In this document: positions 4,614-58,211 of the stretch, in pieces
How positions within the stretch are numbered: the stretch's first letter is position 1
Layout: each line of letters opens with the position of its first letter
IMG/VR virus record: IMGVR_UViG_3300032006_002703
Coordinates: 1-64,000 of that record
Strand: one strand, 5' to 3'
DNA from: a virus
Length of the DNA stretch: 64,000 bases
Translations under genes and position numbers: made by a program
Notes under the pieces: generated by a model
Databases searched by the model: none
Told to the model about the DNA's origin: nothing
Seen by the model: only the letters and a program-made list of their open reading frames with translations

Positions 4614-4619
4614 AATTGA

Positions 4620-4648: not shown

Positions 4649-4656
4649 GAACTTTT

Positions 4657-4836: not shown

Positions 4837-4842
4837 ACCTAT

Positions 4843-25839: not shown

Positions 25840-27694
25840 AGGTAGTCAAATATCCAGGAAAGAGCATCCTGATATAAACGAAATCCTAGCAAATACGCCA
25901 GGGTTCATAGAGGAGCGTGAAGCGCGTATACTTTTATATAAGTTTTTAAGAGAGAACGTTACTTTTGCCACGGATCTAGTTTCTGGAGTAAAACTTTTTC
26001 CGTTTCAGCATATGGCTATCAAGGCTATGTTCGAAACGGATTATTTTATGGGAGTATGGGCTCGGGGAATGTCAAAATCGTTTACCACTGGAATCTATGC
26101 TTTTCTAGAAGCAATATTAAATCAGGGCGTTGAGATAGGTATTCTATCTAAATCATTTAGACAGGCAAAAATGATATTCAAGAAAATTGAAGATATTGCC
26201 GCAAAACCTGAGGCTGCATTTCTTGCTCAATGTATTACTCGTAAAAGCAAAAGCAACGATGAGTGGCTAATGGAGATCGGCCACTCAAGGATCCGAGCCT
26301 TACCTTTGGGAGATGGTGAGAAGCTTCGTGGTTTTAGGTTTCATAGAATTATTATTGATGAGTTCGCGCTAATGCCCGAAAGGATTTTTAATGAAGTTAT
26401 AATTCCCTTCTTGTCTGTTGTTGAGAATCCAACCCAAAGAGAGGATCTATATAATGTAGAAACTACTTTAATTGAACAGGGAGAAATGGCTGAAGAAGAG
26501 CGGCATTTTTGGCCAAACAATAAATTAATAGCGCTTTCTTCTGCTAGCTATAAATTTGAATATATGTACAAAGCTTACGAGCAATTTGATCAACTTATTC
26601 GGGACGGGGGCAAGGATCGCAGTGATGCTCACAGGGTTATCATGCAGTTTAGTTACGATTGTGCGCCTCGATTGCTTTATGACCAAAACCTAATTGATCA
26701 AGCTAAATCTACCATGAGTCAAAGCCAGTTTGATCGAGAATTTGGAGCAGTATTTACAGATGATAGCAGTGGCTACTTTAAGACTTCAACTATGGCGCAA
26801 TGCACGATTCAGGAGGGCGAGGGCGCAAGCATAGAAGTTAAAGGAGCGGAAGGAGACGAATATATTTTATCCTTTGACCCTAGTTGGGCGGAGTCGGAAA
26901 GTTCAGATGATTTCGCTATGCAAGTTTTTAAATTAAATAAAGAAAAGCGGTGGGGCACTCTTGTTCATTCTTACGCAATGCCTGGAACTAAACTAAAAGA
27001 TCATATTAAATATTTTCATTATTTATGGAACAATTTTAATATTATCGCCATTGTTGGGGACTATATGGGTGGAGTCCAGTTTCTTAATGCAGTAAATGAA
27101 AGCGCTCTATTTAAAAAAGATAAAGTTTCATTTGAGCAGATTGACGCAAACTTTGACGATCAAACGAAATATAATAAAGAGCTTGTAAATGCCAGAAGGC
27201 AATATAACCTTAAGGCAAATAAGATATGTTATTTAAGAAAGCCTAGTTCAGCCTGGATTCGTAGAGCCAATGAATTGCTGCAGGCTCACTTCGATCATAA
27301 GAGGATTTGGTTTGGGGCAAGGGCTGTGGATGATGCGTATCAAATTCAAAGAAAGAAAAAAATCCCAATTAATGGCTTAAAGTTTCTCCCGACAGTTGAA
27401 AATGAAAAACAGGACGCTGCGTCAAAGATGATTGATTTGGTGGAGCATCAGTCAGACTTAATAGATCTTACAAAAACTCAATGCGCATTAATTCAAATAA
27501 CAACTAGCCCTCAAGGCACTCAAACGTTCGATCTCCCAGCAAACCTTAAAAAACAAACAGGTCCCGATAAGGCTAGAAAGGATTCTTACTCCGCTCTGGT
27601 TTTGGGAAACTGGATGATAGAAACATACTTTGACATGATGGATGTTGATATGGAAAATTGGGGGACGACCTTTACCCCTCAATTCGTAAACTAG
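25826..27694 (+). CDS. Terminase large subunit
   Basis: 622 residues. ATPase part: Walker A-like VWARGMSKSFTTG (residues 77-89), Walker B RIIIDEFALM near 175. The C-terminal RNase H-like nuclease has FDPSWAESESSDDFAM near 350 and later IVGDYMGG. Size and order match T4-type TerL. It pumps DNA into the prohead and cuts the concatemer. It starts 14 bases inside the nuclease gene. Confidence 0.92.
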   Translation: MSWSEGSQISRKEHPDINEILANTPGFIEEREARILLYKFLRENVTFATDLVSGVKLFPFQHMAIKAMFETDYFMGVWARGMSKSFTTGIYAFLEAILNQGVEIGILSKSFRQAKMIFKKIEDIAAKPEAAFLAQCITRKSKSNDEWLMEIGHSRIRALPLGDGEKLRGFRFHRIIIDEFALMPERIFNEVIIPFLSVVENPTQREDLYNVETTLIEQGEMAEEERHFWPNNKLIALSSASYKFEYMYKAYEQFDQLIRDGGKDRSDAHRVIMQFSYDCAPRLLYDQNLIDQAKSTMSQSQFDREFGAVFTDDSSGYFKTSTMAQCTIQEGEGASIEVKGAEGDEYILSFDPSWAESESSDDFAMQVFKLNKEKRWGTLVHSYAMPGTKLKDHIKYFHYLWNNFNIIAIVGDYMGGVQFLNAVNESALFKKDKVSFEQIDANFDDQTKYNKELVNARRQYNLKANKICYLRKPSSAWIRRANELLQAHFDHKRIWFGARAVDDAYQIQRKKKIPINGLKFLPTVENEKQDAASKMIDLVEHQSDLIDLTKTQCALIQITTSPQGTQTFDLPANLKKQTGPDKARKDSYSALVLGNWMIETYFDMMDVDMENWGTTFTPQFVN

Positions 27695-39029: not shown

Positions 39030-39763
39030 TTTACCGCCTCCATACAAAATTCGTCACTACCAAAGTGATCTAAGTTTGGTTTTGCGAGAGATTTAGATTG
39101 GAATTGTCTTCCGCAAATGCACTTATATGTTTGAAATGCCTCTATATCTTCGCGGCTCTTATAGTATATAGACTTCGTTAATTCAGTTTGAAGATCGTGA
39201 CTCTTTGCAAATTCCTTAACTCTATCCCCTATTAATTGATCGAATGGCAGGTTATTTTTTTCAATAAAAAACGTTGGATTTGTGAATCTGAAATCTGGAA
39301 CACAATTATTGAACGTCATTGTATTATTGAATATAAAGGAATCATAAAATGGAATAGCCATCTTAAGAAGGTCTTCGTTCCATAGTTTTTGCAAGGCTTC
39401 GAAGTTCGTGAAGCCATCGTTTTCAGTAAAAGCGTGGCTGTAGATTTTATTTAAAAGTTTACAGCCTTCTCCATTTTTCGCAAAGATTATAATCTTATGT
39501 GTGCCGTTCGCTTCGCTGCTAGGACCGTTTGGACGTACGTTTAACTTAAGTCCAAAGATAATTTTTTTATTTAAATCTCTTGCGGTGTTGTGTGCCTTTA
39601 GGAATCCAGTAAGAGAGGTCTCCACCAGCACAACTTCTTGAAGATCAAACTCTTCCGCAATCGAGAAAATGCTATCTGCCCCATCTGGCTTTACCTTTGA
39701 GGGATGGTCTAGGGTTAAAATACTTTTTCCTATACTAAAATGCGATGTGAAAAGTGGAATCAT
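39026..39763 (-). CDS. DNA polymerase III alpha, N-terminal PHP part (split)
   Basis: 245 residues that read like the PHP domain of DnaE (MIPLFTSHFSIGKSIL start, DLQEVVLVETSLTGFLKAH, KIIFGLKLNV, LLNKIYSHA), ending in a CICG...C cluster just where the palm would begin. The usual HxH metal ligands at the start are missing, so PHP phosphoesterase activity is unlikely. It probably pairs with the product of 35330-37891 to make one polymerase. Confidence 0.85.
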   Translation of the reverse strand: MIPLFTSHFSIGKSILTLDHPSKVKPDGADSIFSIAEEFDLQEVVLVETSLTGFLKAHNTARDLNKKIIFGLKLNVRPNGPSSEANGTHKIIIFAKNGEGCKLLNKIYSHAFTENDGFTNFEALQKLWNEDLLKMAIPFYDSFIFNNTMTFNNCVPDFRFTNPTFFIEKNNLPFDQLIGDRVKEFAKSHDLQTELTKSIYYKSREDIEAFQTYKCICGRQFQSKSLAKPNLDHFGSDEFCMEAVK

Positions 39764-39847: not shown

Positions 39848-39876
39848 TTGACAGAATACTCCTACTATGGTAGTAT
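39848..39876 (+). promoter_or_regulatory. Sigma70-like promoter, TTGACA-17-TAGTAT
   Basis: TTGACA (39848-39853) and TAGTAT (39871-39876), 17-nt spacer, 20 bases before the preferred ATG at 39897. Divergent from the polymerase promoter 50 bases away. Confidence 0.75.
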
Positions 39877-39896
39877 TCTTTACTGAAATTATATCT

Positions 39897-42317
39897 ATGG
39901 ACATTAAAGTAAAAAAAAGAAATGGGCGCCTCGAGGGGTTTGCTGTAGAAAAGATTAACGCAAGCGCTGCGCGAGCAGTGGGAGAAGTTTCAGATGTCGC
40001 AGCCAGTGAAGTGGTTTTAGATGCGCAATTGCAACTTTTCGATAAAATAACCACAAAAGAGATAGACAAAGCATTAATACTATCCGCGCGTGAGAAGATA
40101 GAAAAGGAGCCAAATTATAATTTTGTCGCCGCAAGACTACTTCTTAATAATCTTTATAAAGAGGTTTTTAATGAGGGGGTGGACTCTGACGTGTTTGAGC
40201 TTCAGTATCGAAAGAGCTTTATTCAGAATGTTAAACGATTAGTTTCTGACGACAGGTTAGACCGAAGGCTTCTTGATTTTGATCTTCGTAAACTTTCGGA
40301 CGCATTGGATATCAAAAGAGATCGACTCTTTAAATATTTAGGGGTGCAGACTTTGTATGATCGTTATTTTATCAGAAAGGAAGGGAAAGTTATGGAGTCT
40401 CCTCAGGCTTTTTGGATGAGGGTTGCAATGGGCCTTGCGATTAACGAAGAAGACAAAACCTCTCGGGCAATAGAATTTTACGATTTAATGAGTCAACTTA
40501 GGTATACCCCTTCTACTCCTACGTTGTTTAACAGTGGGACCACCCATTCTCAATTAAGCTCATGTTATTTGAATACATTTGATGACAGTATTGATGGCAT
40601 TTTTGACGGAGCGTGGCAAGAGGCTCGTAAATCAAAGTACGCTGGAGGCCTTGGTCTGGACGTCACCCCTTTTCGTTCATCTGGCGCCCACATAAAGGGC
40701 ACAAACGGAACCTCTAGCGGTTTGGTTCCATGGTTGAAAATTTATAACGACCTCCTTATTGCGGTAAATCAAGGGGGCAAAAGACCAGGTGCGGGATGCG
40801 CTTATCTTGAGCCTTGGCATTTAGATTATGAGGATTTTCTAAACCTAAGACGGAACACTGGAGATGATAGATTAAGGTGTCACGATATGAATACCGCATC
40901 TTGGATTCCTGACGTTTTCATGAGGACCGTAAAGGAAGAGGGAGATTGGTATATGTTTGACCCCTCTGAATGCTCAGATCTTCATGATTTGTTTGGGGAA
41001 AAGTTCGATAGCCGATATCAATTTTACATCAAAGAAGCTCAGGAAGGGCGAATTAAAAGCTTTAAAAGCATTCCCGCTAAAGAACTATGGAAAAAGATGC
41101 TAAAGGTATTATTTGAGACTTCTCACCCCTGGAATACTTTCAAGGACGCTTGCAATATCAGGTATACAAATCAACACGAAGGAACTGTTAAGAGTTCTAA
41201 TTTATGTACTGAGATTACCCTCCATACAAAAGCTTCGGAATATCACCACGGACAAAAAGTTCAACACGGAGAAACTGCGGTTTGTAATTTGGGCTCAGTA
41301 AATCTTGTAAATCATACCCATAGTCGAGGAATTGATTATAAAAAATTGCGTAAAACCATTTTTACCGCAATGAGAATGCTTGATAATGTTGTCGATCTTA
41401 ATTTTTATCCTACAGAAGAAGCCAGAAGGTCTAATTCAAAGCATAGACCTGTTGGCTTAGGGATGATGGGTTTACATGATGTGCTCCATAAATTTGATAT
41501 TAATTTTGATAGCGATGAGGCGGTATCATTTAATGATAAGCTCTTTGAGGAGTATAGCTGCGCAGCAATCCACGCAAGTAGCAAGTTAGCCAAAGAGAGA
41601 GGGTCTTATCAAACCTTTGAGGGCTCTCTTTGGAGTAAAGATATTTTTCCTGTTGATAGTTACAATAGGCTAATGGAGTATAGGGGCAAGTCAACGATGC
41701 TTGGAAAAGAATCAATCGACTGGAGTTCCTGTAGGGAGTCTGTAAAAAAACATGGAATGAGAAACTCTAATGTTATGGCTATCGCTCCAACTGCTACAAT
41801 TGGATACATTAACGGAGTCGAGCAAAGTATTGAGCCAAATTTTTCTACTATATTTGTTTATGAAAATAAGAGCGGGAATTCCTATATCGTTAATGAGCAC
41901 TTTGTAAACGATATGAAAGCTAGAGGTCTTTGGAATACAGAAAATATTAATTTAATTAAAAGTGTGGATGGAGACTTGTCTCTTGTTAACGGAAGTATCC
42001 CTGAGGATATTAAAGAGAAATATAAAACCGCATTTGATAGAGATGTGTTTAAGTTAATTGAATGTAATGCTGTTCGACAAAAATGGATTGATCAGGCAAT
42101 AAGCTTTAATCTTTACAATAAGACTACTTCCATGAAATATTTAAATGATGTTTATATGGCTTGTTGGGAGGCTGGATTAAAGACTACCTATTATCTGCGC
42201 AATCGTGCCGCATCAAAGATAGAGAAATCTACTTCTAGTGACGAAAAAACAGAAGAGCTCTCTTCTTGCAGTATTGATGCCATGATGAACGGCGGTTCCT
42301 GCGAAAGTTGTCAGTGA
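39897..42317 (+). CDS. nrdA: Ribonucleotide reductase class I, alpha subunit
   Basis: 806 residues. An N-terminal ATP cone (about 1-90; KVKKRNGRLEGFAVEKIN) implies allosteric dATP control. Catalytic features: SSCYLNTF, SSNLCTEI (Asn, Cys, Glu), AVCNLGSVNL, and a C-terminal C-x2-C tail (GGSCESC) for thioredoxin reduction. It makes deoxynucleotides from ribonucleotides. The longer frame from 39867 starts inside the promoter, so 39897 is chosen. The beta subunit follows. Confidence 0.95.
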   Translation: MDIKVKKRNGRLEGFAVEKINASAARAVGEVSDVAASEVVLDAQLQLFDKITTKEIDKALILSAREKIEKEPNYNFVAARLLLNNLYKEVFNEGVDSDVFELQYRKSFIQNVKRLVSDDRLDRRLLDFDLRKLSDALDIKRDRLFKYLGVQTLYDRYFIRKEGKVMESPQAFWMRVAMGLAINEEDKTSRAIEFYDLMSQLRYTPSTPTLFNSGTTHSQLSSCYLNTFDDSIDGIFDGAWQEARKSKYAGGLGLDVTPFRSSGAHIKGTNGTSSGLVPWLKIYNDLLIAVNQGGKRPGAGCAYLEPWHLDYEDFLNLRRNTGDDRLRCHDMNTASWIPDVFMRTVKEEGDWYMFDPSECSDLHDLFGEKFDSRYQFYIKEAQEGRIKSFKSIPAKELWKKMLKVLFETSHPWNTFKDACNIRYTNQHEGTVKSSNLCTEITLHTKASEYHHGQKVQHGETAVCNLGSVNLVNHTHSRGIDYKKLRKTIFTAMRMLDNVVDLNFYPTEEARRSNSKHRPVGLGMMGLHDVLHKFDINFDSDEAVSFNDKLFEEYSCAAIHASSKLAKERGSYQTFEGSLWSKDIFPVDSYNRLMEYRGKSTMLGKESIDWSSCRESVKKHGMRNSNVMAIAPTATIGYINGVEQSIEPNFSTIFVYENKSGNSYIVNEHFVNDMKARGLWNTENINLIKSVDGDLSLVNGSIPEDIKEKYKTAFDRDVFKLIECNAVRQKWIDQAISFNLYNKTTSMKYLNDVYMACWEAGLKTTYYLRNRAASKIEKSTSSDEKTEELSSCSIDAMMNGGSCESCQ

Positions 42318-42324
42318 TTCTTGC

Positions 42325-42353
42325 TTGACTTTTTGCTTTTTTTTTGCTATTAT
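42325..42353 (+). promoter_or_regulatory. Sigma70-like promoter, TTGACT-17-TATTAT
   Basis: TTGACT (42325-42330) and TATTAT (42348-42353), 17-nt T-rich spacer, seven bases before ATG 42361. It gives the beta subunit its own leaderless-type transcript. Confidence 0.75.
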
Positions 42354-42360
42354 AATAGGC

Positions 42361-43374
42361 ATGGATAATAAATCAGGAGAATTACTGTCGGAAGACATCG
42401 CGGGCGTAAATAGAATACTTCCACACAAACATAAATTTGCGTGGGATTTATTTTTGAAAAGTTGCGCCAATAACTGGATGCCAACCGAAATATCAATGCA
42501 AGACGATATTAATCAATGGAAAAATAATGAAATCACAGATGATGAAAAACTCCTCGTCAAGAGGTGCCTCGGCTTTTTTGCAGGAAGCGAGTCTTTGGTT
42601 GGCAATAACCTTTTGCTTTCTGCTTTCAGATTTATTACGGATGCTGAATGTCGTCAGTACATTTTGCGCCAAGCTTTTGAAGAAAGCCTTCATAACCTTA
42701 CCGTTGTATATATCTGCGACAGTTTGGACTTGGATGTCGAAGAGGTGTTTAACGCCTACGAAACTATACCTAGCATCAAAGCTAAGGACGATTTCCTCAT
42801 GGAAATTACCACGGATATTAGCAGGGAAGACTTTAAGCCAACCTCAAAGGAGGGCAAACAGGAAATTCTAAGAAATCTTCTTACATACTATATTGTATGT
42901 GAAGGTACTTTTTTCTTTAGCGGTTTTGCAATGCTTCTCGCTCTGGGTAGGCAGAATAAACTGCAAGGAGTTTCCGATCAAATCAAATATACCCTTAGAG
43001 ATGAAAGTAGTCATATTGCTTTTGGCACTTATTTGATTAATACTCTTATTGAACAGAACCCATCTATTTGGACTAAGTCCATTCAGTCTGAGTTTGTTGA
43101 GCATATTAAAAAAGCGGTTGATTTAGAAATTGCGTATGCTAAGGATGTTTTACCTACTGGTATTTTGGGTCTTAATGCTGATATGTTTATTGATTATATG
43201 CATTACATTGGTAATCGTAGGCTTGAGGCTATTGGCTTAGATTATCGTTTCCCTAGCGACAAAAACCCTTTTCCTTGGCTTGGTGAAGTCGTAGACGTAC
43301 AAGCTATGGGGAACTTCTTTGAGAGGCGAGTAAGGGAATATCAGCAAGGTGGGGCTCTTGAGGAAGATTTTTAA
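42361..43374 (+). CDS. nrdB: Ribonucleotide reductase class I, beta subunit lacking the radical Tyr
   Basis: 337 residues. Metal ligands are visible: Glu77 in GSESLVGNN, Glu108 and His111 in FEESLHNLTVVYI, a Glu in CEGTFFFSG, and Glu and His in RDESSHIAFG. Aligning ESLHNLTV with ETIHSRSY of E. coli NrdB puts Val115 where radical Tyr122 should be; the nearest Tyr is two residues on. Tyr-less R2 proteins (subclass Ic, as in Chlamydia, with Phe) use a Mn/Fe centre. This one is probably of that kind, if the alignment holds. Confidence 0.92.
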   Translation: MDNKSGELLSEDIAGVNRILPHKHKFAWDLFLKSCANNWMPTEISMQDDINQWKNNEITDDEKLLVKRCLGFFAGSESLVGNNLLLSAFRFITDAECRQYILRQAFEESLHNLTVVYICDSLDLDVEEVFNAYETIPSIKAKDDFLMEITTDISREDFKPTSKEGKQEILRNLLTYYIVCEGTFFFSGFAMLLALGRQNKLQGVSDQIKYTLRDESSHIAFGTYLINTLIEQNPSIWTKSIQSEFVEHIKKAVDLEIAYAKDVLPTGILGLNADMFIDYMHYIGNRRLEAIGLDYRFPSDKNPFPWLGEVVDVQAMGNFFERRVREYQQGGALEEDF

Positions 43375-49050: not shown

Positions 49051-49060
49051 TGTATTACAC
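49051..49060 (-). promoter_or_regulatory. Late-type promoter motif, GTGTAATACA
   Basis: Minus-strand GTGTAATACA four bases before ATG 49046, overlapping the last codons of the acyl-CoA dehydrogenase gene. Confidence 0.5.
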
Positions 49061-50872
49061 AATACTCTCTAAAAATTCATGTTCCCCATTTAGGATTTCT
49101 TTTGCTAGCGCATAGTTTTTCTTGTCGTTATTTTTTGATATCGCTTTAAATTTTTCCTCTATTTTTATTTTTGAATTTTTAAATACGCAATCCGCTAGCT
49201 TTCTTGCTTCTTTTGTGTTAATCGATTGAGCTCTCGACGAAGAGGCGGCGATAACAAATAATTCTGCACCGATTTCTGCCAGTCTCCCAAGAAGTAGCTG
49301 CTGTTTATCTAGTGCGGGTCCGTATCTTACCATTGAATGAAAAAGCTTTCTCGCAAGCTTTTTGCTAGTTTTTGAAACATACTTTAATTGACCTTTTAAG
49401 GCGGGATCCATACCATTTGGTATTCTATGAGAAAAAGGGAGCCACTGCTTTGGGTACCATTTTGCATAAAACCATGCCGCTTTAATTGCTGCGACCATTC
49501 TTGTTTTCATTGGCAGTCTACTGTCTAAAACTGCACCTGCTGCCTTGAGGTGGGGATCTAATGCTTCTCTTGCAAGGATGAGTCGCATTATTTCGCTTGA
49601 CCCTTCAAAAATAAGGTTAATTCTTAAATCTCTAAACATTCTCTCTACTGCAGGGTTAAGTTGCCCTCTGTTTTTTAAAGACTGCGCGGTTTCGTAGCCT
49701 CTTCCGCCTCTAATTTGCATTGTTTCGTCGATCATTTTCCAGGCGGTTTCTGTTCCCCACATTTTTGCTATAGCAGATTCAACTCTAATATCGTGATTTT
49801 TATTGTCTGCCATTTGTGCGGTTAATAGTACCATGGATTCCATAGCAAACGTATTTGCAGCAAGGTGAGCTAACTTATCTGCAATTGCGGAATGTTTTCC
49901 TATTACACAGCCCCACTGTGATCTGGTAGACGTCCACTGTCTGCAAACCTTAAGCATCCATTTTGTTGCGCCAACACATATGGCGGGGAGGGTCAATCTT
50001 CCAATATTTAAAGTTCCCAAGGCAACTTTCATCCCCCTCCCTTCTCCTAGTATAATATTTTCTTTAGGGACGTAAACTTCATCAAATTTTACAACTCCAT
50101 TGTATAACGCCTTAAGCCCCATGAACCTGCATCGATTAACTATACTTACTCCTGGCATATCCATGTCTACAATAAAAGCTGTAATTTGCTTTTTTCCATT
50201 TTTGTCTGGGGTTCTAGCCATTACTATGATGTGTTCCGCTTTTAATCCATTGGTGCACCAAAGCTTTTCTCCATTTAATACAAAATGACTTTTGTCTTCT
50301 GAGAGCTTTGCTTCTGTGATCATTTTGGAGGGGTCAGAACCTACTCCATCTTCCGTTAAAGCAAAAGCGCTTACCGCACCATTGCTGAATTTTGGTAAAT
50401 ATTTTTCTTTTTGCTCTTCTGTTCCGTACATCAAAAGGGGTTGGGGCACGCCTATTGATTGATGCGCGGACAGTAGGGCAGATATATTTCCGCACTCCGA
50501 GCCGCAGACCATTGCAGCCTTTGAGTAATTTGTTTGAGATAAACCTCTTCCTCCGTATTCTTTTGGGATCTTGATTGCAAAGGCTCCAATTTTTGCCAGC
50601 TCTTTAAATACCTCATCGGGAATTTCCCCATTTTCATCTATGGCGTCAGGGTCTACGTATTCGGTAAAAACATTTTTTAAATCCGAAGTGAAGTCTTCTC
50701 CCATTTTTGATTGGTGTTCGTTTTGCTGGGGAAATGGAAATATATCGTTAAAGTTTATATTTCCACTATATAATCCACCTGCAAACGTTTTATTTAAATC
50801 CTCTCTCCCTGCTTCCGCAGCCTCAAGTGCGGCAGCTTTATCTTTCGACATTTTTGATGTATCTATTGACAT
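49055..50872 (-). CDS. Acyl-CoA dehydrogenase (long-chain type)
   Basis: 605 residues, the length of VLCAD-type enzymes with an extra C-terminal domain. FAD/acyl motifs: ALTEDGVGSDPSKM (171-184) and LNGEKLWCTNG (199-209); the catalytic base Glu423 is in IFEGSSEIMRL. It oxidises acyl-CoA to trans-2-enoyl-CoA. It starts two bases after the stop of the FadB-like gene. All key residues are kept, so it appears functional. Electrons would need the host's electron-transfer flavoprotein. Confidence 0.94.
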   Translation of the reverse strand: MSIDTSKMSKDKAAALEAAEAGREDLNKTFAGGLYSGNINFNDIFPFPQQNEHQSKMGEDFTSDLKNVFTEYVDPDAIDENGEIPDEVFKELAKIGAFAIKIPKEYGGRGLSQTNYSKAAMVCGSECGNISALLSAHQSIGVPQPLLMYGTEEQKEKYLPKFSNGAVSAFALTEDGVGSDPSKMITEAKLSEDKSHFVLNGEKLWCTNGLKAEHIIVMARTPDKNGKKQITAFIVDMDMPGVSIVNRCRFMGLKALYNGVVKFDEVYVPKENIILGEGRGMKVALGTLNIGRLTLPAICVGATKWMLKVCRQWTSTRSQWGCVIGKHSAIADKLAHLAANTFAMESMVLLTAQMADNKNHDIRVESAIAKMWGTETAWKMIDETMQIRGGRGYETAQSLKNRGQLNPAVERMFRDLRINLIFEGSSEIMRLILAREALDPHLKAAGAVLDSRLPMKTRMVAAIKAAWFYAKWYPKQWLPFSHRIPNGMDPALKGQLKYVSKTSKKLARKLFHSMVRYGPALDKQQLLLGRLAEIGAELFVIAASSSRAQSINTKEARKLADCVFKNSKIKIEEKFKAISKNNDKKNYALAKEILNGEHEFLESIV

Positions 50873-50873
50873 A

Positions 50874-52850
50874 TTAGTGTGGTCCTGAAAATTTACTATA
50901 CTCTATGGGGCCACCCTTAAAGGGTGCCCAACCTGTTCCCATGATCATTGCAAAATCGATATCGTCTGTAGTTTTTGCAACCTTTTCTTGTATGCATTTC
51001 TGCGCTTCTTGAGTCATTGACTCTACCATCTTGCTTTCTATGTCGCACAATATGGGGTTGTCTTTTTGCATTTTTAAAAATACTGGGTTTGGACAGACAG
51101 CTTCCCTCCCTTTATACAGGAAGAATCCTTTTCCGCTTTTTCTTCCAAATTGTTTTGTTTCTAGGATTTTATGAATTATTTGAGGGACCTTAAAATCATC
51201 TAGCCTTTTTTCTAAATCAAGCGCTACATGAGCTGCAACATCGAGACCTATTTCATCAAGCAGTCTTAGCGGACCCATAGGCATGCCAAAATCTAACATA
51301 CAGTTCTCTATGGAGGTTAGCGGGTGCCCGTCCGAAAATAATCTTAAAGCTTCAACAAGATAGGGTAATAGGATTCTGTTAACCAAAAAGCCTGGACTAT
51401 CCTTAACCACTACTGGAAGCTTTCCTATTGAGATTACAAATCTTTTTGCTCTATCTTCTGTCTCTGCGCTAGTTTTCTCTCCAACAACAATCTCAACCAA
51501 TTTCATCTTATGTACGGGATTAAAAAAATGAATTCCCACAAAGTTTTCTGGTCTTTTAAGTCCTTTTGCAAGTTCGGTTATTGACAGCGCAGAAGTGTTT
51601 GTCGCGAGAATTGCATCTTCTGCTAGCCCGCTCTCTATTTCCTGCAGGACCTTTGTTTTTAATTCGAAATTTTCTACAACAGCCTCTATCGCTAGACTTT
51701 GCTTACTAAGGGGTACAGAGTTTTTTGTGAAGTTCAGTTTTCCCAAACAATCTCTAACTGTGGGCCTATCTATTTTATGCTTAAGTACCGCAGAAACAAA
51801 AAGTTTGCCTATTTTTTTGAGACCAGATGCTATTGCGCTCTCAGAAACATCCTTTAATAAAACTCTTTTTCCTCTAGAGGATATCCATTGGGCAATCCCT
51901 GCGCCCATTGTTCCTGCGCCAATAACGACAATATCATCATCTATTTGTTTATCAAGTTTCGGGTCATACCATGGCATTCCATGGGGAAGCTTTTTCGCTC
52001 TTTCTTGCAGAAAGAATACTCTTATTAAATTTCTACAAGCCTTAGTTTTTGCGAGAGAAAGGAACCCTTTCTTTTCTAGCTTGAGTGCTGCGTACTTATT
52101 TTTAAAAAAACTTTTTGCCACAACTTCAATTATTTTATTGGGTGCAGGGTAGTTTCCTCTAGTCTTTTTATAAACACTTTTCTTTGATAGAAAAATTGAA
52201 ATCGGCAATAGTATGGCTTGTGTTAATTTATTGACTTTTCTTTTTGGTTTTTTGGAACCACACAAGCTAACGGCCTCTTTAAAAAGATTTTCCTTGTGGC
52301 ACATCTTATCCACCATTCCTAATTTAAGCGCTTGAATTGGGGCATAGATTTTACCAGAAAGCAATGCCTGTAGGGATTTTGGTAAACCAATTATTCTTGG
52401 CAACCTAGTTGTTCCTCCCCATGCGGGTAATATCCCAAGCATAACCTCTGGGAGCCCTAGTTTTGTGCATTTTTCATTGGATGCAATTCTGTATTTACAT
52501 GCAAGAGACAATTCTAATCCCCCACCGAGGCAGGCGCCATTGATTGCGGCCACGGTAGGTATACTTAACCTTTCTATTCTATTAAAACTCTCTTGTCCGT
52601 AGCGCAAAACTCCACGAAGCCACTTTTCGTTTGTTAAATTATCTTTCATGGATAGAAGATCCGCTCCTGCAAGATAAATCGAGGGTTTCTTGCTGACGAA
52701 AATAAGACCTTTAATATCTTTATTTCCTTCGACCTCCTCCAGGATTTCATTCAATCTAATAAAAAAATCCATATTTAAGATATTTGCTTTAGAGTTTGGT
52801 TGATCAAACTCTGCTACTGCAATTCCGTCTGTTATATTAAAATTAATCAT
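50874..52850 (-). CDS. fadB: Bifunctional enoyl-CoA hydratase / 3-hydroxyacyl-CoA dehydrogenase
   Basis: 658 residues from MINFNITDGIAVAEFDQPNS. Crotonase part: AGADLLS oxyanion region, GGGLELSLAC with Glu113 and LGLPEVMLGILPAWGG with Glu135, the two catalytic acids. Dehydrogenase part: NAD site VVIGAGTMGAGIAQW (near 313) and HFFNPVHKMKLVE with the catalytic His. It hydrates enoyl-CoA and oxidises the product to 3-ketoacyl-CoA. ATGA overlap with the thiolase gene fixes the start. FadB/FadJ-like; intact. Confidence 0.95.
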   Translation of the reverse strand: MINFNITDGIAVAEFDQPNSKANILNMDFFIRLNEILEEVEGNKDIKGLIFVSKKPSIYLAGADLLSMKDNLTNEKWLRGVLRYGQESFNRIERLSIPTVAAINGACLGGGLELSLACKYRIASNEKCTKLGLPEVMLGILPAWGGTTRLPRIIGLPKSLQALLSGKIYAPIQALKLGMVDKMCHKENLFKEAVSLCGSKKPKRKVNKLTQAILLPISIFLSKKSVYKKTRGNYPAPNKIIEVVAKSFFKNKYAALKLEKKGFLSLAKTKACRNLIRVFFLQERAKKLPHGMPWYDPKLDKQIDDDIVVIGAGTMGAGIAQWISSRGKRVLLKDVSESAIASGLKKIGKLFVSAVLKHKIDRPTVRDCLGKLNFTKNSVPLSKQSLAIEAVVENFELKTKVLQEIESGLAEDAILATNTSALSITELAKGLKRPENFVGIHFFNPVHKMKLVEIVVGEKTSAETEDRAKRFVISIGKLPVVVKDSPGFLVNRILLPYLVEALRLFSDGHPLTSIENCMLDFGMPMGPLRLLDEIGLDVAAHVALDLEKRLDDFKVPQIIHKILETKQFGRKSGKGFFLYKGREAVCPNPVFLKMQKDNPILCDIESKMVESMTQEAQKCIQEKVAKTTDDIDFAMIMGTGWAPFKGGPIEYSKFSGPH

Positions 52851-54103
52851 TCGCACGTCTCAATTTCTATAGCGGACCCCTGGCCTCCGCCAACACAGAG
52901 CGAGGCGAGTCCTTTTTTTAGACCCCTTCTTTTTAACTCTTTAGCTAAAGTAAGAATGATTCTTGCTCCAGAAGCTCCAACAGGATGTCCTAGCGCTATC
53001 GCTCCTCCATTAACGTTAAATTTCTCATCTGGAATTTCGCCAATATCGTTTTCGATTACTTTCTTGCATGCAAGTGTCTGTGCGGCAAACGCTTCATTTA
53101 TTTCTATCAAATCCATGTCTTTAAGGTTGACTCCAAGTTTCTTGATTGCAAACACTGGGCCAAGGCCCATTCTTTTTGGGTCGCAGCCAACATGAGTGTA
53201 ATTGTTTATTTTTGCAATAGGTTTTTTTCCTGTTTTATTTAATCCTTCTTCAGTCATTAACAGCAAGGCAACTGCTCCGTCTGTTACTTGAGAAGAATTA
53301 CCTGCGGTTACCGTTCCTTCTCTTTTGTCAAAAATAGCGCGAAGCCTGTTGAGTTTTTCTGTCGTCGTATCTTCCCTGATTCCATTGTCTTTAGTGATAA
53401 CTTCGCCGCTGGGAGAGTTAATGCAATCATCGTTTGAAATGTATATTGGTGATATTTCATCCGCTTGAATAAGACTGGTTGCCATGGAGGCTTTCCCGTG
53501 AGAAAGAAAGGAAAAAATGTCCTGCTCTTTTCTGCTGATTTCATATTCTCTCGCTAAAATTTCTGCAGTCTGCCCCATATTAATTCCAGACAGGGGATCG
53601 TGCAGGCCCATGCGTAAACTAATTTTTGGAGCTAAATCACTTAATCTAAATTTTAAGATTGCTTTTAATTTCTCTTTTTTTGTTTTTGCCCCGAAGAGAG
53701 AAAATATCTTTTTAGACGTTGATCTTGAAAAAAGCAGGGGCATTTGAGACATGCTTTCCGTTCCTCCTGCAAGGAATATATGGCCTTCATTAGCCTTTGC
53801 TTTTGCCGAGGCACACGTTACTGCTTCGAATCCAGAGGCGCAATTTCTATGAACGGTTACTGCTGGTATATTTTTGGGCAAACCAAGTCTTGTTCCAATA
53901 ATCCTAGAAACATTCATTTCGTCAGCGGGCTGCCCAACGCAACCGAATATAACTTCATCTATCAAACCTAGGTCTATGTCTACTTCAGATAGGACTCCTT
54001 TACTCGCTGCAATCCCTAATGCAGACGCAGATTCCTCTGCAAGAGAGGTTCCCATCTTGCAAAACGGGGTTCTTTTTCCCTCTACAATATATAAGTCAGA
54101 CAT
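52847..54103 (-). CDS. fadA: Acetyl-CoA acyltransferase (3-ketoacyl-CoA thiolase)
   Basis: 418 residues from MSDLYIVEGKRTPFCKMGTS. Active-site Cys88 in HRNCASGFEAV, His in IALGHPVGASG, and a second Cys in CVGGGQGSA near the end: the complete thiolase triad. It cleaves 3-ketoacyl-CoA to acetyl-CoA and a shortened acyl-CoA. It is first in the operon. TATACT lies six bases before ATG 54103, but no good -35 box is seen; GTG 54109 is an alternative start. Confidence 0.95.
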   Translation of the reverse strand: MSDLYIVEGKRTPFCKMGTSLAEESASALGIAASKGVLSEVDIDLGLIDEVIFGCVGQPADEMNVSRIIGTRLGLPKNIPAVTVHRNCASGFEAVTCASAKAKANEGHIFLAGGTESMSQMPLLFSRSTSKKIFSLFGAKTKKEKLKAILKFRLSDLAPKISLRMGLHDPLSGINMGQTAEILAREYEISRKEQDIFSFLSHGKASMATSLIQADEISPIYISNDDCINSPSGEVITKDNGIREDTTTEKLNRLRAIFDKREGTVTAGNSSQVTDGAVALLLMTEEGLNKTGKKPIAKINNYTHVGCDPKRMGLGPVFAIKKLGVNLKDMDLIEINEAFAAQTLACKKVIENDIGEIPDEKFNVNGGAIALGHPVGASGARIILTLAKELKRRGLKKGLASLCVGGGQGSAIEIETCE

Positions 54104-54137
54104 CGGCACAGTATATAGTAAATAATCTGTGAGAAAA

Positions 54138-54542
54138 TTACATTTTCCTTAGCATTAATATTGTTTTTCTTAGGTCTGGGTCTATAGGTTCTGGCAATTT
54201 ATCTATCGAAAAATAATCCCAGTCGTTATGCTCGTAGCCATCTGGAGCACAGACTAGGTTGGGCCTGATTCTTTTAGCGATAGGATAAAGATAGCAAAAG
54301 AAATGTCTATTGTTTGTTATGCGAAATTTATTAACGAAGGTTAGTGCGTATCTAGTTTTAATGAGAGTTTCTTCATACAGTTCTCTTTCTGCAGCCTTCC
54401 AGATCGGCTCTCCAGTTTCTACCATTCCGCATGGGACGCTCCAGTAGCCTTCTAGTTCTGTCCCCTTTATGCATCTTTTAAGCAATAAAACATCATTCTT
54501 GCATTTTAACAAAACTCCTGCGACCTTAAGAGAGGAAGTCAT
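54138..54542 (-). CDS. Nudix hydrolase
   Basis: 134 residues with the Nudix box GMVETGEPIWKAAERELYEE (G-x5-E-x7-RE-x2-EE, about residues 39-58). It cleaves nucleoside-diphosphate-linked compounds; the substrate cannot be read. It overlaps the nuclease gene upstream by 17 bases and is part of the replication cluster, so nucleotide-pool cleaning is plausible. Confidence 0.88.
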   Translation of the reverse strand: MTSSLKVAGVLLKCKNDVLLLKRCIKGTELEGYWSVPCGMVETGEPIWKAAERELYEETLIKTRYALTFVNKFRITNNRHFFCYLYPIAKRIRPNLVCAPDGYEHNDWDYFSIDKLPEPIDPDLRKTILMLRKM

Positions 54543-55605
54543 CTATGATCTCCTTGTTCTCCCAATGCGGACATCCGTCATATTGCATTATTTTAACTCT
54601 TTCTCCTTTTTTCTCCTTGGGACAAAGTGAGCCCCTGTCTTCGTAGAACGCAGTTTTAATTATGTTTTCATCTTTATCTAATAGGGCCACGTATTTCATA
54701 GGTTTTCTAAAAGGACATATATAATTTTTTATTTTTTTTCCTTTTGCATCAAGAAGGAACTCTCCTTTTCTTTTCTTGTATCCCTCCCTTCCGCAGGCCA
54801 GTGGTCCTCCGAAGCTTCCATCGCTTGGGTAATCTTTTTTAGCTGCATACGAGGCCGTTGCGTTTTTGTAAGAGTAATTTTCTAAATATTTTTGTACTGC
54901 TGTCAATTCATGCTCAAAGCCTTCCAGCTCTTCTTCGCTTATTGATGGCATTTGAATTATTCCTTTGCCTGTTTTTCCTAACAAATCAACTGATAGATCA
55001 AACTTAAGAAACACAAACTCACTGCTACTTTTGTATTCTGGGTATAAATGCTTAACCGCCAAAGAGTACATTAAATCCTGTAGGTTATCTGTTAGGTCTT
55101 TTCCTTTAAAGGTTTGCTTGCTTGATTTGAAATCTCTAATGTTTGCAGTGCCATCTTTGTACAAAAAAAGCTGGTCAATGAAACCTCTTATAGAATATTT
55201 TAACGAACCTTTATTTATGTCTATATTGAATTCTTTTTCTATAAATCTCTTTTTAAGATCTTTATTTTCGTCTCCATAAAAATCATAGCCCAGGCCGTTG
55301 ACAATCATTCTGTTCATGTCCTCCATGTTTTCGTCGTCAATAACGGAAAGTCTTTTTGCGTGGGATTCGATTAACTCTTTAATTTCTGGAACGCACCATA
55401 CATTTCTTTCTTTTAATATTTTATTAAATTGCCTTTTTTTTCCTTTTTGAGCCAGTGTTTCAAAAACTAAATGGCAGATCCAGCCTTTGCTTGCCCCCTC
55501 GTTTGTTGTGTCTGGAAGTTTTAAGATGTACTTGCACCAATATGTCCACGAGCATTGCTGCGCGGTTTTTATTCTGCTCGCGGACAATTTGACAGGCTTA
55601 TTCAT
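54526..55605 (-). CDS. PD-(D/E)XK nuclease, RecB/Cas4-like
   Basis: 359 residues. N-terminal KLSASRIKTAQQCSWTYWCK is the RecB/Cas4-type opening with Cys. The catalytic core is in YSIRGFIDQLFL and ANIRDFKSSKQ (Asp ... Asp-x-Lys). Further Cys residues near the C-terminus (ACGREG, ICPFRKP, GSLCP, DGCPHW) could complete an iron-sulfur cluster. Likely a replication/recombination exonuclease. Overlaps the primase gene by eight bases. Confidence 0.8.
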   Translation of the reverse strand: MNKPVKLSASRIKTAQQCSWTYWCKYILKLPDTTNEGASKGWICHLVFETLAQKGKKRQFNKILKERNVWCVPEIKELIESHAKRLSVIDDENMEDMNRMIVNGLGYDFYGDENKDLKKRFIEKEFNIDINKGSLKYSIRGFIDQLFLYKDGTANIRDFKSSKQTFKGKDLTDNLQDLMYSLAVKHLYPEYKSSSEFVFLKFDLSVDLLGKTGKGIIQMPSISEEELEGFEHELTAVQKYLENYSYKNATASYAAKKDYPSDGSFGGPLACGREGYKKRKGEFLLDAKGKKIKNYICPFRKPMKYVALLDKDENIIKTAFYEDRGSLCPKEKKGERVKIMQYDGCPHWENKEIIDDFLS

Positions 55606-56647
55606 TTATTAAGTCAAGAAGTATCTTTTTGTTTTTTAGCAACTGTTTTGATAACTCTTTATTCTCTTGCATTTCTTTAATTATTTCTAGAATAAATCTC
55701 CTCTGCTCTATTTCTTTAATTTCTGTTTTTTTATTTTCCCATTTAAGGAAGTCCTTCTCGTCCATATCTCCGAAGTCATTTTTTACTGGTAGACAGAGCA
55801 TTATTTTTTCTGGCGGAAAATGAGATAAGAGCTTTAAATAATTTTTAACGGAAGCTTTAAGGCCTCTATTTTCTTCCTTGCCTAAATCGTTATTGAATGC
55901 AATTATTATTTTTTTTGGACATAAGGATATTAGCGCACAAATTAATTTTGGTGAGATACTAAGACCGAAAGATACTAATGTGTTTTTATGGCCAAATTCT
56001 TGACACTTTAGTAAATCCCCTATGCTTTCCACTAGGATCACTTCATCCTTCTTTAAAATGCACTCCCTGGTCTCGCTATCTGTATACAGTGGATATATCC
56101 AGCTACTTTTTCTTCCAACATGTTTCCACTTTGGTCTCATAGAATTTTGGAGCATATCTCTTCCTGAAAACCCGTGGATTTGTTTATGTTCGTTATATAT
56201 AGGGAATACGAATCTCTGATTTAGTTGTCCCGAGGTCGCTCTCCCTCCTTTAAGATTCTTAAGTATCTTGCTTGAGATTCCTTTATCATTATAGAATTTA
56301 TAATGTGGAAGTAGTCTTTCTAGGCAGGATTCGTCATGAATTTCTTCTAGTTCGATTTTTTGTGGAGCGCATCTTTTACTATAAAGTTCGTCGATTTTAT
56401 TATTTTTAAAATATTTATTAATTTCTTTCGGGTCATTAGTTCCCAAGGTTGCTTGAATTAACCTTTTAAGCGGTGAGAATCGAGTGCCCTTAACGTAATC
56501 TTTCCACACTCCTGTATCTTTGTAGATTTGTATGGCTGTTGTATTGTCTCCATTTCTGAATATCGCATTCGTTTGCCAATAGGCGCCCCTGTCCGAGAGT
56601 TTGTATCCCAGGTCCTCTAGCACCTCCTTAATTTGTTCGCTATCCAT
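55598..56647 (-). CDS. DNA primase, Toprim type
   Basis: 349 residues. A Toprim core is recognisable: ILVESIGDLLKCQEFG (catalytic Glu), LVSFGLSI, and KKIIIAFNNDLGKEENRG in place of the D-x-D strand. The N-terminal region (FRNGDNTTAIQIYKDTGVWK) resembles the primase zinc/N-terminal domain but lacks its Cys ligands. It sits directly downstream of the DnaB helicase gene, the usual pairing at a phage fork. Confidence 0.8.
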   Translation of the reverse strand: MDSEQIKEVLEDLGYKLSDRGAYWQTNAIFRNGDNTTAIQIYKDTGVWKDYVKGTRFSPLKRLIQATLGTNDPKEINKYFKNNKIDELYSKRCAPQKIELEEIHDESCLERLLPHYKFYNDKGISSKILKNLKGGRATSGQLNQRFVFPIYNEHKQIHGFSGRDMLQNSMRPKWKHVGRKSSWIYPLYTDSETRECILKKDEVILVESIGDLLKCQEFGHKNTLVSFGLSISPKLICALISLCPKKIIIAFNNDLGKEENRGLKASVKNYLKLLSHFPPEKIMLCLPVKNDFGDMDEKDFLKWENKKTEIKEIEQRRFILEIIKEMQENKELSKQLLKNKKILLDLINE

Positions 56648-56650
56648 AAT

Positions 56651-58174
56651 TTAAAGAGTCGGGACTGTGTTCTCTCGGTCGCCCCCGTCATCAATTAAAG
56701 CTACATCTTCTAGGATCATATGGTCAACCATATCTCTTAGGTCGCCCTTTTCCGTTATTCCAAAGTTTTCTATCTCAAGGTTGATATAATTTTGTTTAGT
56801 GCTTCCGTCTGCTAATTCTACAGGCTGCAATGCTCTATAAACATCTGGACCTAAGTGCCTATGTTTAAAACAAATTAATTTATGGGTGCCAAAGCCTGCA
56901 GGCTCTGAATCTAGTTCGTCAAGCGTTTTCTTTCTTAGGCTAAATAGATGAGAACTAAATTGAGTAATTCTGTCAGAAAGAGAAACGATACTTTCATCGT
57001 CCACAATTGAATCTGAATTTCTATTCGTGGTTATTCCGTACCTATTACTTTGAACACTGGTAATCATTGATATCATAGGATCTCCTTCGAAACATATTTC
57101 CTTTTGAACCAGGGCCTTAAACTTGTCTACCATTTCTCCGACCACCTGCCACTCGTTCTTATTTGAGAATTTCTCTGAGGTTGTCTTGATATAATCAAAA
57201 CTAAAAATCATCTTGTTTCCTCTTCCTACTTTTGCATAATAAAACCTTTTTATAATATTTAACATTGCGTCCACCGAAAGCCCTGCTACGTTATAGTAAT
57301 AGAATTTTAGACTTTTTACCTTAGGCCAAACTGCCCTAACCTTATTGATTACCTCATCCCCAGCTTGTCTCCATTTTCCTGTTTCAAGTAAATGAAGGGG
57401 AACCCCAGAAAGCGCCGCGCACTGACGCATAGTCAGCTCTTCTTTACTCATTTCTCCGTTATCAAAGTGGAGAACTGGAAGGTTTTCTTGAGAGCCTGAA
57501 ACTTTAATCGAAAAATCCATACAAAAATTTGTTTTCCCGACTCCAGATCTTGCAACAATTACTGTTATATTTCCTGGCCTAAGGAGGGATCCGTAAAGAT
57601 CGTTAATTCTAGAGTGAGGTCCTTCTGGGCCAAAGTCTTCTATGGGATTATTTCCCCTCTCTTCGATCATTTGCTCCATCTCTTCGAATATGTTTTCTGG
57701 AGAATCGGAGCCTTCTTGGTAGGTGTTTATTTGCTCGTTGTAAATTGTATCCGCGCTATTAATTATCTCATCATAAGAGGTTGAGTCTGGTAGTGACCTC
57801 ATTTTTTTTGCGACATTAACTGATGCGTCATAAATGCCCCTTCTTACCGAAACTTTTTTTAACTCTTTAGCTGTTTTTATGACAGAGTTTTCTGATATTT
57901 TGCGCATAGACAGAGCTTTAATGTAGTCTCCTATATTTAGGTTATCCTCAAATGATATCCCCAATGAGCTAACCCTTTGGGCTAATATAACCTCATCAAG
58001 AATCTCTCCCGACTCCAAGGCCTGCTTCAGGACGCAGAATATAGTTTTATTTACTAACGAATTTTCATCGTAGAAGTCCTGCTCAGAGATGAATGGGGCA
58101 ACCTCAACATATAAATTAGGATACTTCATCAAACCTGCGAGCAAATGCTGTTCGTAATCTAGTGAATGGATCAT
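56651..58174 (-). CDS. dnaB: Replicative DNA helicase, DnaB family
   Basis: 507 residues from MIHSLDYEQHLLAGLMKYPN. An N-terminal DnaB helical domain (1-110), a linker helix, and a RecA-like motor with Walker A VIVARSGVGKTNFCMDF and Walker B MIFSFDYIKT. It unwinds the fork 5' to 3'. The longer frame from 58201 overlaps the promoter, so 58174 is the start. Confidence 0.92.
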   Translation of the reverse strand: MIHSLDYEQHLLAGLMKYPNLYVEVAPFISEQDFYDENSLVNKTIFCVLKQALESGEILDEVILAQRVSSLGISFEDNLNIGDYIKALSMRKISENSVIKTAKELKKVSVRRGIYDASVNVAKKMRSLPDSTSYDEIINSADTIYNEQINTYQEGSDSPENIFEEMEQMIEERGNNPIEDFGPEGPHSRINDLYGSLLRPGNITVIVARSGVGKTNFCMDFSIKVSGSQENLPVLHFDNGEMSKEELTMRQCAALSGVPLHLLETGKWRQAGDEVINKVRAVWPKVKSLKFYYYNVAGLSVDAMLNIIKRFYYAKVGRGNKMIFSFDYIKTTSEKFSNKNEWQVVGEMVDKFKALVQKEICFEGDPMISMITSVQSNRYGITTNRNSDSIVDDESIVSLSDRITQFSSHLFSLRKKTLDELDSEPAGFGTHKLICFKHRHLGPDVYRALQPVELADGSTKQNYINLEIENFGITEKGDLRDMVDHMILEDVALIDDGGDRENTVPTL

Positions 58175-58182
58175 ATTGCTAT

Positions 58183-58211
58183 AGTATAGCAAACAATCCA
58201 ACGAATGTCAA
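58183..58211 (-). promoter_or_regulatory. Sigma70-like promoter, TTGACA-17-TATACT
   Basis: Minus-strand TTGACA (58206-58211) and TATACT (58183-58188), 17-nt spacer, eight bases before ATG 58174. Drives helicase, primase, nuclease and Nudix genes. The -35 box overlaps the stop of the preceding gene. Confidence 0.8.

What the first reader, a model, noticed from the sequence alone, without database searches (positions are those of the whole stretch)
49055..54103. A complete fatty-acid beta-oxidation operon inside a phage genome
Thiolase, FadB-like hydratase/dehydrogenase and acyl-CoA dehydrogenase lie head to tail on one strand, with an ATGA overlap and a one-base gap. All catalytic residues I can locate are kept (Cys88/His/Cys in FadA; Glu113, Glu135 and the HFFNPVH His in FadB; Glu423 in the dehydrogenase). 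Phage genes flank both sides (Nudix/RecB-like/primase/helicase; RNR/DnaE), and a phage late-type motif sits at the operon's end. Single metabolic genes are common in phages, but a whole turn of beta-oxidation as one operon is, to my knowledge, rare or undescribed. It could burn host lipids or membrane acyl chains for acetyl-CoA and reducing power during infection. No acyl-CoA ligase or transporter is visible.
Basis: partly seen in the sequence, partly recalled or inferred. Interest (0 to 1): 0.92.

Follow-up and report, generated by a model that had tools for sequence, protein, structure and literature searches.

The report
Phage operon for fatty-acid beta-oxidation
A large uncultured phage carries, as one compact and intact-looking operon, all the enzymes for a full turn of fatty-acid breakdown; the same kind of cassette recurs in several unrelated phages, so some viruses probably make infected cells burn fat for energy, which I could not find described before.

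Summary
Window 49055-54109 (minus strand) encodes a thiolase, a FadB/FadJ-type hydratase-dehydrogenase and a VLCAD/ACAD9-type acyl-CoA dehydrogenase (ACAD), with a 4-base overlap, a 1-base gap and all catalytic residues kept. It lies in a variable cargo locus of a real, uncultured phage lineage. It is not a chimera: an independent, divergent relative (G001) has the ACAD and the FadB end at the same place, contiguous with terminase and RNR. A second, T4-like lineage carries thiolase-FadB-ACAD in the same order (four contigs with the triad, five cut short), beside Ldh_2 and serine dehydratase. Other T4-like phages carry thiolase-FadB, some with a FadE-type ACAD. Trees place the operon of lineages 1 and 2 next to Planctomycetota, where ligase-thiolase-FadB-ACAD operons exist; the phages dropped the ligase. 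All three genes are under purifying selection (dN/dS 0.07-0.17). Best reading: an auxiliary metabolic module that drives oxidation of host acyl-CoA during infection; expression and flux are untested. Qualifications: G000's FadB lacks about 45 C-terminal residues, no ligase or EtfA was found, and the claimed late-promoter motif is absent. IMG/VR trims several such phages exactly at the cassette, which may explain why it was overlooked.

The parts
52847..54109 (-). 3-ketoacyl-CoA thiolase (FadA/FadI/TFE-beta type), 420 aa from GTG (ATG at 54103)
   Evidence: Pfam PF00108/PF02803; above the NCBIfam cut-off of TIGR01930 acetyl-CoA C-acyltransferase; Cys90, NEAFA, GHP, CVGGGQG
50874..52856 (-). FadB/FadJ-like bifunctional enoyl-CoA hydratase / 3-hydroxyacyl-CoA dehydrogenase, 660 aa, C-terminus about 45 aa short
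   Evidence: Pfam ECH_1, 3HCDH_N, 3HCDH; AF2 model pLDDT 84.5 matches the E. coli anaerobic TFE alpha subunit 6ysv/6ysw with TM 0.91-0.92; Glu115, Glu137, His443 invariant in A7
49055..50872 (-). VLCAD/ACAD9-type acyl-CoA dehydrogenase, 605 aa
   Evidence: Pfam incl. ACAD9-ACADV_C; closest solved structures ACAD9 and VLCAD; catalytic Glu423; 80% identical in phage G001
48699..49046 (-). DUF2784 small membrane-like protein, 115 aa, next to ACAD; present wherever this VLCAD-type ACAD was found in phages
   Evidence: Pfam PF10861; among the 80 RecB-anchored loci found only in the two that also have ACAD; also in G001 and in lineage 2
54138..54542 (-). Nudix hydrolase: phage-conserved boundary of the cargo locus, upstream in the same transcription direction
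   Evidence: Pfam PF00293; homologue in 25 of 58 spanning relatives
54526..55605 (-). RecB-like PD-(D/E)XK nuclease, conserved phage anchor
   Evidence: Pfam PF12705; 141 relatives in IMG/VR, best 80 fetched
55598..58201 (-). primase-like and DnaB-like helicase genes, conserved phage replication module
   Evidence: PHROG phrog_19; colinear in relatives
39867..43374 (+). ribonucleotide reductase alpha and beta genes, conserved anchor on the other side
   Evidence: colinear in relatives at 74-77% and 88-90% identity
46236..47519 (-). DUF1501 protein, inside or at the edge of the cargo locus
   Evidence: Pfam PF07394; homologues in many spanning relatives
25826..27694 (+). terminase large subunit, shows that the record is a tailed phage
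   Evidence: PHROG phrog_2; about 70% identical homologues in 80 fetched IMG/VR contigs

Best explanation
This is a phage-borne auxiliary metabolic operon, captured from a planctomycete-like acyl-CoA ligase - thiolase - FadB - ACAD operon with the ligase left behind. It encodes a complete long-chain-type beta-oxidation spiral: the ACAD introduces the trans-2 double bond, FadB hydrates it and oxidises the 3-hydroxyacyl-CoA, and the thiolase releases acetyl-CoA. SHOWN: enzyme families, intact catalytic residues, operon arrangement, location in a phage cargo locus, recurrence of the same operon in a second phage lineage, purifying selection. INFERRED: during infection the enzymes are made together with the replication module just upstream (same strand, 28-base gap) and raise the oxidation rate of the host's existing acyl-CoA pool, from imported fatty acids or from membrane and storage lipids. 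This would give acetyl-CoA, NADH and reduced ETF for ATP and dNTP synthesis, with activation (acyl-CoA synthetase) and electron transfer (ETF) supplied by the host.
For: Three intact genes with catalytic residues; FadB model folds as TFE alpha; ACAD closest to ACAD9/VLCAD. Phage context and no chimera: divergent relative G001 with ACAD 80%, the FadB end, terminase 70%, RNR-beta 89%, colinear; 58 relatives span the same locus, two with an ACAD plus DUF2784 there, the rest empty or with other cargo. Second lineage L440-L448 with thiolase-FadB-ACAD, contiguous with gp32-, UvsX- and gp41-like genes and RNR. Purifying selection: ACAD dN between G000 and G001 0.13, below terminase 0.22 and DnaE 0.23; lineage-2 dN/dS thiolase 0.08-0.15, FadB 0.12-0.17, ACAD 0.07-0.14, against RNR 0.07-0.10. 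Origin: next to or nested in Planctomycetota in the ACAD tree (100/98), FadB (100) and thiolase (97); operons with the same order in planctomycete genomes, each preceded by an AMP-binding ligase. Precedent: virocells raise fatty-acid degradation under low phosphate (PMC11170926).
Against: No expression or activity data. G000's FadB lacks about 45 C-terminal residues (also in G001), so full activity is not assured. No ligase and no EtfA in the phage sequence, so host partners are needed. DUF2784's role is unknown. Only one record of the window's own lineage (G000, with its trimmed copy G002) shows the thiolase; G001 is cut by its contig end inside FadB. The host is uncultured and only inferred.
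Confidence: 0.74

Rival explanations
1. The enzymes are active but serve lipid or membrane remodelling or depletion rather than energy: the phage lowers or reshapes host acyl-CoA or membrane acyl chains, for example to change membrane properties for assembly or lysis or to blunt lipid-dependent host responses.
For: ACAD is of the long-chain ACAD9/VLCAD family; ACAD always comes with the small DUF2784 protein; two relatives keep ACAD plus DUF2784 without FadB or thiolase; contig L458 has an acyltransferase/alpha-beta hydrolase fusion beside FadE, thiolase and FadB.
Against: The full degradative triad with active sites kept in two lineages, and neighbouring catabolic genes (Ldh_2, serine dehydratase) in lineage 2, point to carbon and energy yield.
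Confidence: 0.12
2. In G000 itself the pathway is decaying: the truncated FadB is partly inactive and only ACAD (with DUF2784) is kept for its own function, as in G033 and G035.
For: FadB C-terminal truncation shared with G001; long FadB and thiolase branches in G000; ACAD-only relatives.
Against: All hydratase and dehydrogenase active-site residues are kept; the model is confident to residue about 650; thiolase intact.
Confidence: 0.08
3. The enzymes run in the biosynthetic direction (reverse beta-oxidation) or the thiolase mainly makes acetoacetyl-CoA.
For: Thiolases and FadB-type enzymes are reversible in principle (established knowledge).
Against: The ACAD is of the ETF-linked VLCAD/ACAD9 type, not a trans-enoyl-CoA reductase; the bacterial operons carry an acyl-CoA ligase, as degradative ones do.
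Confidence: 0.03
4. The phage carries the operon as neutral or transient cargo (hitch-hiking host DNA) without function.
For: It sits in a variable cargo locus and is found in few members of the window's lineage.
Against: dN/dS 0.07-0.17 in lineage 2 and low dN for ACAD between G000 and G001; operon compacted relative to bacteria; recurrence in several lineages.
Confidence: 0.02
5. Assembly chimera or host contamination: a bacterial segment joined to a phage contig.
For: The trimmed IMG/VR record G002 ends exactly at the thiolase stop, as if software called the left part host.
Against: G002 is the same scaffold, trimmed at a gene boundary; the discarded left part holds terminase, RNR and DnaE. 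G001 from another metagenome has ACAD and the FadB end at the same place with 80% ACAD identity. Lineage-2 contigs have the operon next to phage genes.
Confidence: 0.01

Closest known systems
Bacterial thiolase-FadB-ACAD operons of Planctomycetota (L389/G499, L403/G760)
   Same: Same gene order and the same protein families; nearest sampled bacterial sequences (in L389 thiolase 52%, FadB 44%, ACAD 53%); FadB and thiolase of G499 group with the phage genes.
   Different: Bacterial operons begin with an AMP-binding ligase and G499's spacing before ACAD is looser; phage versions lack the ligase, overlap or nearly touch, and lie in phage genomes.
Trifunctional enzyme (FadBA / FadJI / mitochondrial TFP) with VLCAD/ACAD9
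   Same: Domain architecture, active sites and fold.
   Different: Below the NCBIfam equivalog cut-offs for FadB and FadJ; G000 FadB lacks about 45 C-terminal residues; no BFVD viral structure matches at full length.
Viral auxiliary metabolic genes of lipid metabolism: fadB/fadL in ocean viromes; single acdA in Microcystis phage MaAM05
   Same: Viral sequences encoding fatty-acid metabolism enzymes (fadB and fadL reported from the Pacific Ocean Virome, PMC10452541; acdA in MW495066).
   Different: Those are single genes or genes from bulk viromes; here the full spiral is one operon in identified phage genomes, in two lineages, with selection evidence.
Giant-virus beta-oxidation genes (Prymnesium kappa virus RF01 and others)
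   Same: Viral acyl-CoA dehydrogenase and related enzymes proposed to redirect host lipids to energy (PMC9270025).
   Different: [quoted passage not shown] the phage operon has these two steps as well.

Membership tests
VLCAD/ACAD9-type acyl-CoA dehydrogenase | Acyl-CoA_dh_N, _M and C-terminal domains plus ACAD9-ACADV_C domain | tested here: met
   (all above curated cut-offs)
VLCAD/ACAD9-type acyl-CoA dehydrogenase | catalytic glutamate in the FEG(S/T) motif | tested here: met
   Glu423, aligned with IFEGTNE of ACAD9; kept in G001, and as LEGS-E in the divergent G033/G035 copies
VLCAD/ACAD9-type acyl-CoA dehydrogenase | ETF-dependent oxidation of long-chain acyl-CoA | not testable with these tools
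   needs enzyme assay; no EtfA homologue found in the phage sequences searched
Trifunctional enzyme alpha (FadB/FadJ/HADHA) | N-terminal ECH plus C-terminal 3HCDH domains | tested here: met
   (TM 0.91-0.92 to 6ysv/6ysw)
Trifunctional enzyme alpha (FadB/FadJ/HADHA) | hydratase Glu pair and dehydrogenase His | tested here: met
   Glu115, Glu137, His443 invariant in A7
Trifunctional enzyme alpha (FadB/FadJ/HADHA) | full-length C-terminal region | tested here: not met
   G000 ends at residue 660, about 45 residues before its bacterial and lineage-2 homologues; lineage-2 phages are full length. 'Works like' is kept; strict membership is qualified.
FadJ (PRK11154) or FadB (PRK11730) equivalog | score above the NCBIfam cut-off | tested here: not met
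   542.8 against 869 and 516.8 against 870 bits: same superfamily and likely reaction, not an orthologue by this test
Acetyl-CoA C-acyltransferase (thiolase, TIGR01930) | score above cut-off and Cys-His-Cys active site | tested here: met
   407.6 against 240.55 bits; Cys90, GHP, Cys405
Viral auxiliary metabolic gene | located inside a bona fide viral genome, contiguous with hallmark genes | tested here: met
Viral auxiliary metabolic gene | cellular metabolic homologue and host-like origin | tested here: met
Viral auxiliary metabolic gene | maintained by selection in viruses | tested here: met
Viral auxiliary metabolic gene | expressed and changes host metabolism in infection | not testable with these tools
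   needs transcriptomes and metabolite measurements of infected cells

The most novel reading that the evidence does not exclude
Driving the host's fatty-acid beta-oxidation is a general strategy of several unrelated groups of large phages, acquired at least twice (VLCAD-type operon in lineages 1 and 2; a different thiolase-FadB, in part with a FadE-type ACAD, in other T4-like phages). These phages convert host lipid, possibly the host's own membranes or stores, into acetyl-CoA and reducing power for virus production. The cassette was overlooked partly because provirus-trimming software cuts viral records at it.
Probability: 0.5. Interest if true: 0.9.

Novelty: new variant of a known kind. 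Interest (0 to 1): 0.84.

Why it matters
Viral reprogramming of metabolism is known mainly for photosynthesis, the pentose phosphate pathway, nucleotides, phosphate and sulfur (general knowledge). A complete lipid-oxidation spiral in phages would add fatty acids as a fuel of infection and link phage infection to lipid turnover. It gives a concrete mechanism to test for the rise of fatty-acid degradation seen in virocells. It also shows a practical blind spot: automatic virus/host trimming can delete such cassettes from databases at exact gene boundaries.

Tried and rejected
Chimera: rejected. Cultured relatives: none close; terminase at about 24% identity, no DUF1501 in INPHARED phages. Most thiolase/FadB/ACAD hits in INPHARED are records that look bacterial ('Acinetobacter phage MD-2021a' pieces, Salmonella genomes) and were not used. 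Bdellovibrionota as source: the first genome scan gave a Bacteriovoracaceae ACAD at 45% and the phylum gives up to 53%, but Planctomycetota score higher (55%, 703 against 656 bits) and have the operon; in the Bdellovibrionota loci examined the ACAD stands alone. Verrucomicrobiota and most other phyla were not sampled. A first ACAD tree held wrong-frame ORFs (long branches L388, L396, L398); the extraction was corrected and the tree repeated. The careful FadB tree did not finish, so the quick tree is cited. Late-promoter motif at the operon end: not found. A search for ACAD in 30 terminase relatives found none, and FadB in 29 records only in G001. Single-protein scans of IMG/VR missed lineage 2; only the alignment-based thiolase scan found it, so counts are lower bounds.
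Full report
WHAT IS THERE. The window is bases 1-64000 of a 107,410-base virus record. On its minus strand lie a thiolase (52847-54109), a FadB-like protein (50874-52856) and an acyl-CoA dehydrogenase, ACAD (49055-50872), all complete ORFs with full-length Pfam domain sets. The thiolase stop and the FadB ATG overlap (ATGA), and FadB and ACAD are one base apart. Active-site residues are present in all three. The ACAD is closest among solved structures to human ACAD9 and VLCAD and has their C-terminal domain. The FadB model (AlphaFold2, pLDDT 84.5) matches the E. coli anaerobic trifunctional-enzyme alpha subunit with TM 0.91-0.92, while no predicted viral structure listed from BFVD matches beyond TM 0.23 by query length. 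G000's FadB stops about 45 residues before its bacterial and lineage-2 homologues, and so does the FadB of its relative G001; this is a conserved truncation whose effect is unknown.

IT IS A PHAGE, AND THE OPERON BELONGS TO IT. The record has a terminase, a phage-type DNA polymerase, a DnaB-like helicase and a UvsX-like recombinase. Its terminase has about 70% identical homologues in the 80 IMG/VR contigs fetched and no close cultured relative; anchored relatives reach 211 kb. Record G001 (IMGVR_UViG_3300046532_004458, 47,968 bases, another metagenome) is colinear with G000 over the DnaE-RNR-terminase region and carries, at the same place, the last 39 residues of FadB at its contig edge, then ACAD (80% identical) and DUF2784 (70%). 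Two more relatives, G033 and G035, have an ACAD (41-42% over its length, about 50% in the catalytic part) with DUF2784, but neither FadB nor thiolase was found in them. In 58 relatives whose fetched stretch spans from RecB to the next conserved anchor, the gap between them ranges from none to 9.5 kb and holds different cargo, often nucleotide-sugar and glycosyltransferase-like genes. The operon therefore occupies a variable cargo locus of this lineage, and a chimeric join is excluded for practical purposes.

A SECOND PHAGE LINEAGE HAS THE SAME OPERON. An alignment-based thiolase scan found nine contigs (L440-L448) with RNR-alpha, a trypsin-like protease, RNR-beta, DUF2784, Ldh_2 (malate/L-lactate dehydrogenase), thiolase (49-52% identical), FadB (46-50%, full-length C-terminus) and ACAD (64-67%), then, where the contig reaches, serine dehydratase. 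L440, L441, L446 and L447 hold all three beta-oxidation genes; the other five are cut by contig ends. Upstream in the same contig as L441 are a gp32-type ssDNA-binding protein, UvsX, an exonuclease and a gp41-type helicase, preceded by PrkA, DUF444 and SpoVR genes. So this is a T4-like phage, quite unlike the window's lineage.

FURTHER LINEAGES. L449-L456 carry a different thiolase-FadB pair (39-44% and about 35-36% identical). In L449 it lies between a T4-type major head protein and tail tube on one side and SbcC/SbcD-like (gp46/gp47) genes on the other. L454 has in addition a FadE-type ACAD (cut by the fetched stretch), RNR-beta and ThyX. L458 has FadE, an acyltransferase/alpha-beta hydrolase fusion, thiolase and FadB next to a thymidylate synthase and an exonuclease. 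These were not studied further, but they suggest that phages acquired beta-oxidation genes more than once.

ORIGIN. Planctomycetota have the highest-scoring bacterial ACADs found (55%, 703 bits; Bdellovibrionota 53%, 656 bits). In the tree all eight phage ACADs of lineages 1 and 2 form one clade (100/100), within a group with two planctomycetes (100/98). FadB of both phage lineages groups with planctomycete G499 (100), and so does the thiolase with G499 and one more planctomycete (97). G499 (L389) and G760 (L403) have the order AMP-binding ligase - thiolase - FadB - ACAD. The simplest history is capture of such an operon by a phage, loss of the ligase, and later exchange between phage lineages, or capture twice from near relatives. 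Sampling: 392 planctomycete and up to 369 Bdellovibrionota genomes, plus a pattern-limited scan of GTDB species for ACAD. Verrucomicrobiota and most phyla were not systematically tested.

FUNCTION. The genes are under purifying selection: in lineage 2, dN/dS is 0.08-0.15 (thiolase), 0.12-0.17 (FadB) and 0.07-0.14 (ACAD), near the RNR control at 0.07-0.10; between G000 and G001, ACAD dN is 0.13 against 0.22-0.23 for terminase and DnaE, with synonymous sites mostly saturated. No AMP-binding ligase was found in G000, nor homologues of the planctomycete ligases in the phage sequence held, 0.95 Mb with overlaps, and no EtfA in the phage set searched. The best reading is that the phage increases the oxidative part of the pathway and depends on the host for activation, transport and electron transfer. 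Infection-time fatty-acid degradation has a precedent: marine virocells enhance it under low phosphate (PMC11170926). Whether the purpose is energy, carbon or membrane change is inference.

WHY IT WAS PROBABLY MISSED. The IMG/VR record G002 (54,564 bases) is the window's own scaffold cut exactly at the thiolase stop codon: 107410 - 52847 + 1 = 54564, and the compared stretches are identical. In lineage 2, the 151,802-base and 161,235-base records end exactly at the stop codon of DUF2784, the gene before Ldh_2 and thiolase, and the 94,640-base record appears to do the same. Automatic removal of 'host' flanks is the likely cause (inference).

LITERATURE. Searches of the open PMC library found no phage with a complete beta-oxidation operon. 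fadB and fadL had been listed from ocean viromes (PMC10452541), and giant viruses have ACAD but were reported to lack hydratase and thiolase (PMC9270025). Subscription papers and preprints were not searched.

Noticed in passing
window 46236-47519; G001 (L008) 8573-10618 and 11215-12483; L189, L190, L212, L216: This phage lineage widely carries DUF1501 and, in many members, DUF1549/DUF1553 (PSCyt2/PSD1) proteins, families I know mainly from planctomycete-type bacteria; no INPHARED phage has a DUF1501 match. They hint at a planctomycete-like host.
   Followed up: partly
L483 (contig 3300025654_000933), L489 (3300049740_003016), L490 (3300020460_001010), G002: Large IMG/VR phage records end exactly at gene stop codons beside the beta-oxidation cassette, consistent with provirus-trimming software removing phage cargo.
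   Followed up: partly
L449-L458: Further T4-like phage contigs with thiolase-FadB, some with FadE and an acyltransferase/hydrolase fusion: probably separate acquisitions of beta-oxidation.
   Followed up: partly
L189 7843-9390; L191 11136-12674: Fast-evolving, shorter ACAD copies (515 and 512 aa) without FadB or thiolase but still paired with DUF2784; perhaps a new function.
   Followed up: partly
L440 6000-7085 and 13181-14536: Lineage-2 phages flank the operon with Ldh_2 and serine dehydratase, so the cassette may be a broader catabolic island.
   Followed up: no
L470 3-4091: A PrkA - DUF444 - SpoVR gene set in a phage, upstream of gp32 and UvsX.
   Followed up: no
window 43371-45329: Secreted-looking TSP3-repeat protein, conserved next to the cargo in related phages.
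   Followed up: no
window 38526-39047: SET-domain protein between RNR and DnaE of the phage.
   Followed up: no
window 32796-35318: ClpB/ClpA-like AAA+ chaperone next to DnaE in the lineage; some relatives also carry a ClpP-like protease (L189 5931-6635).
   Followed up: no
window 1-5000: Higher G+C and few convincing genes compared with much of the window, with some short ORFs conserved in G001.
   Followed up: no
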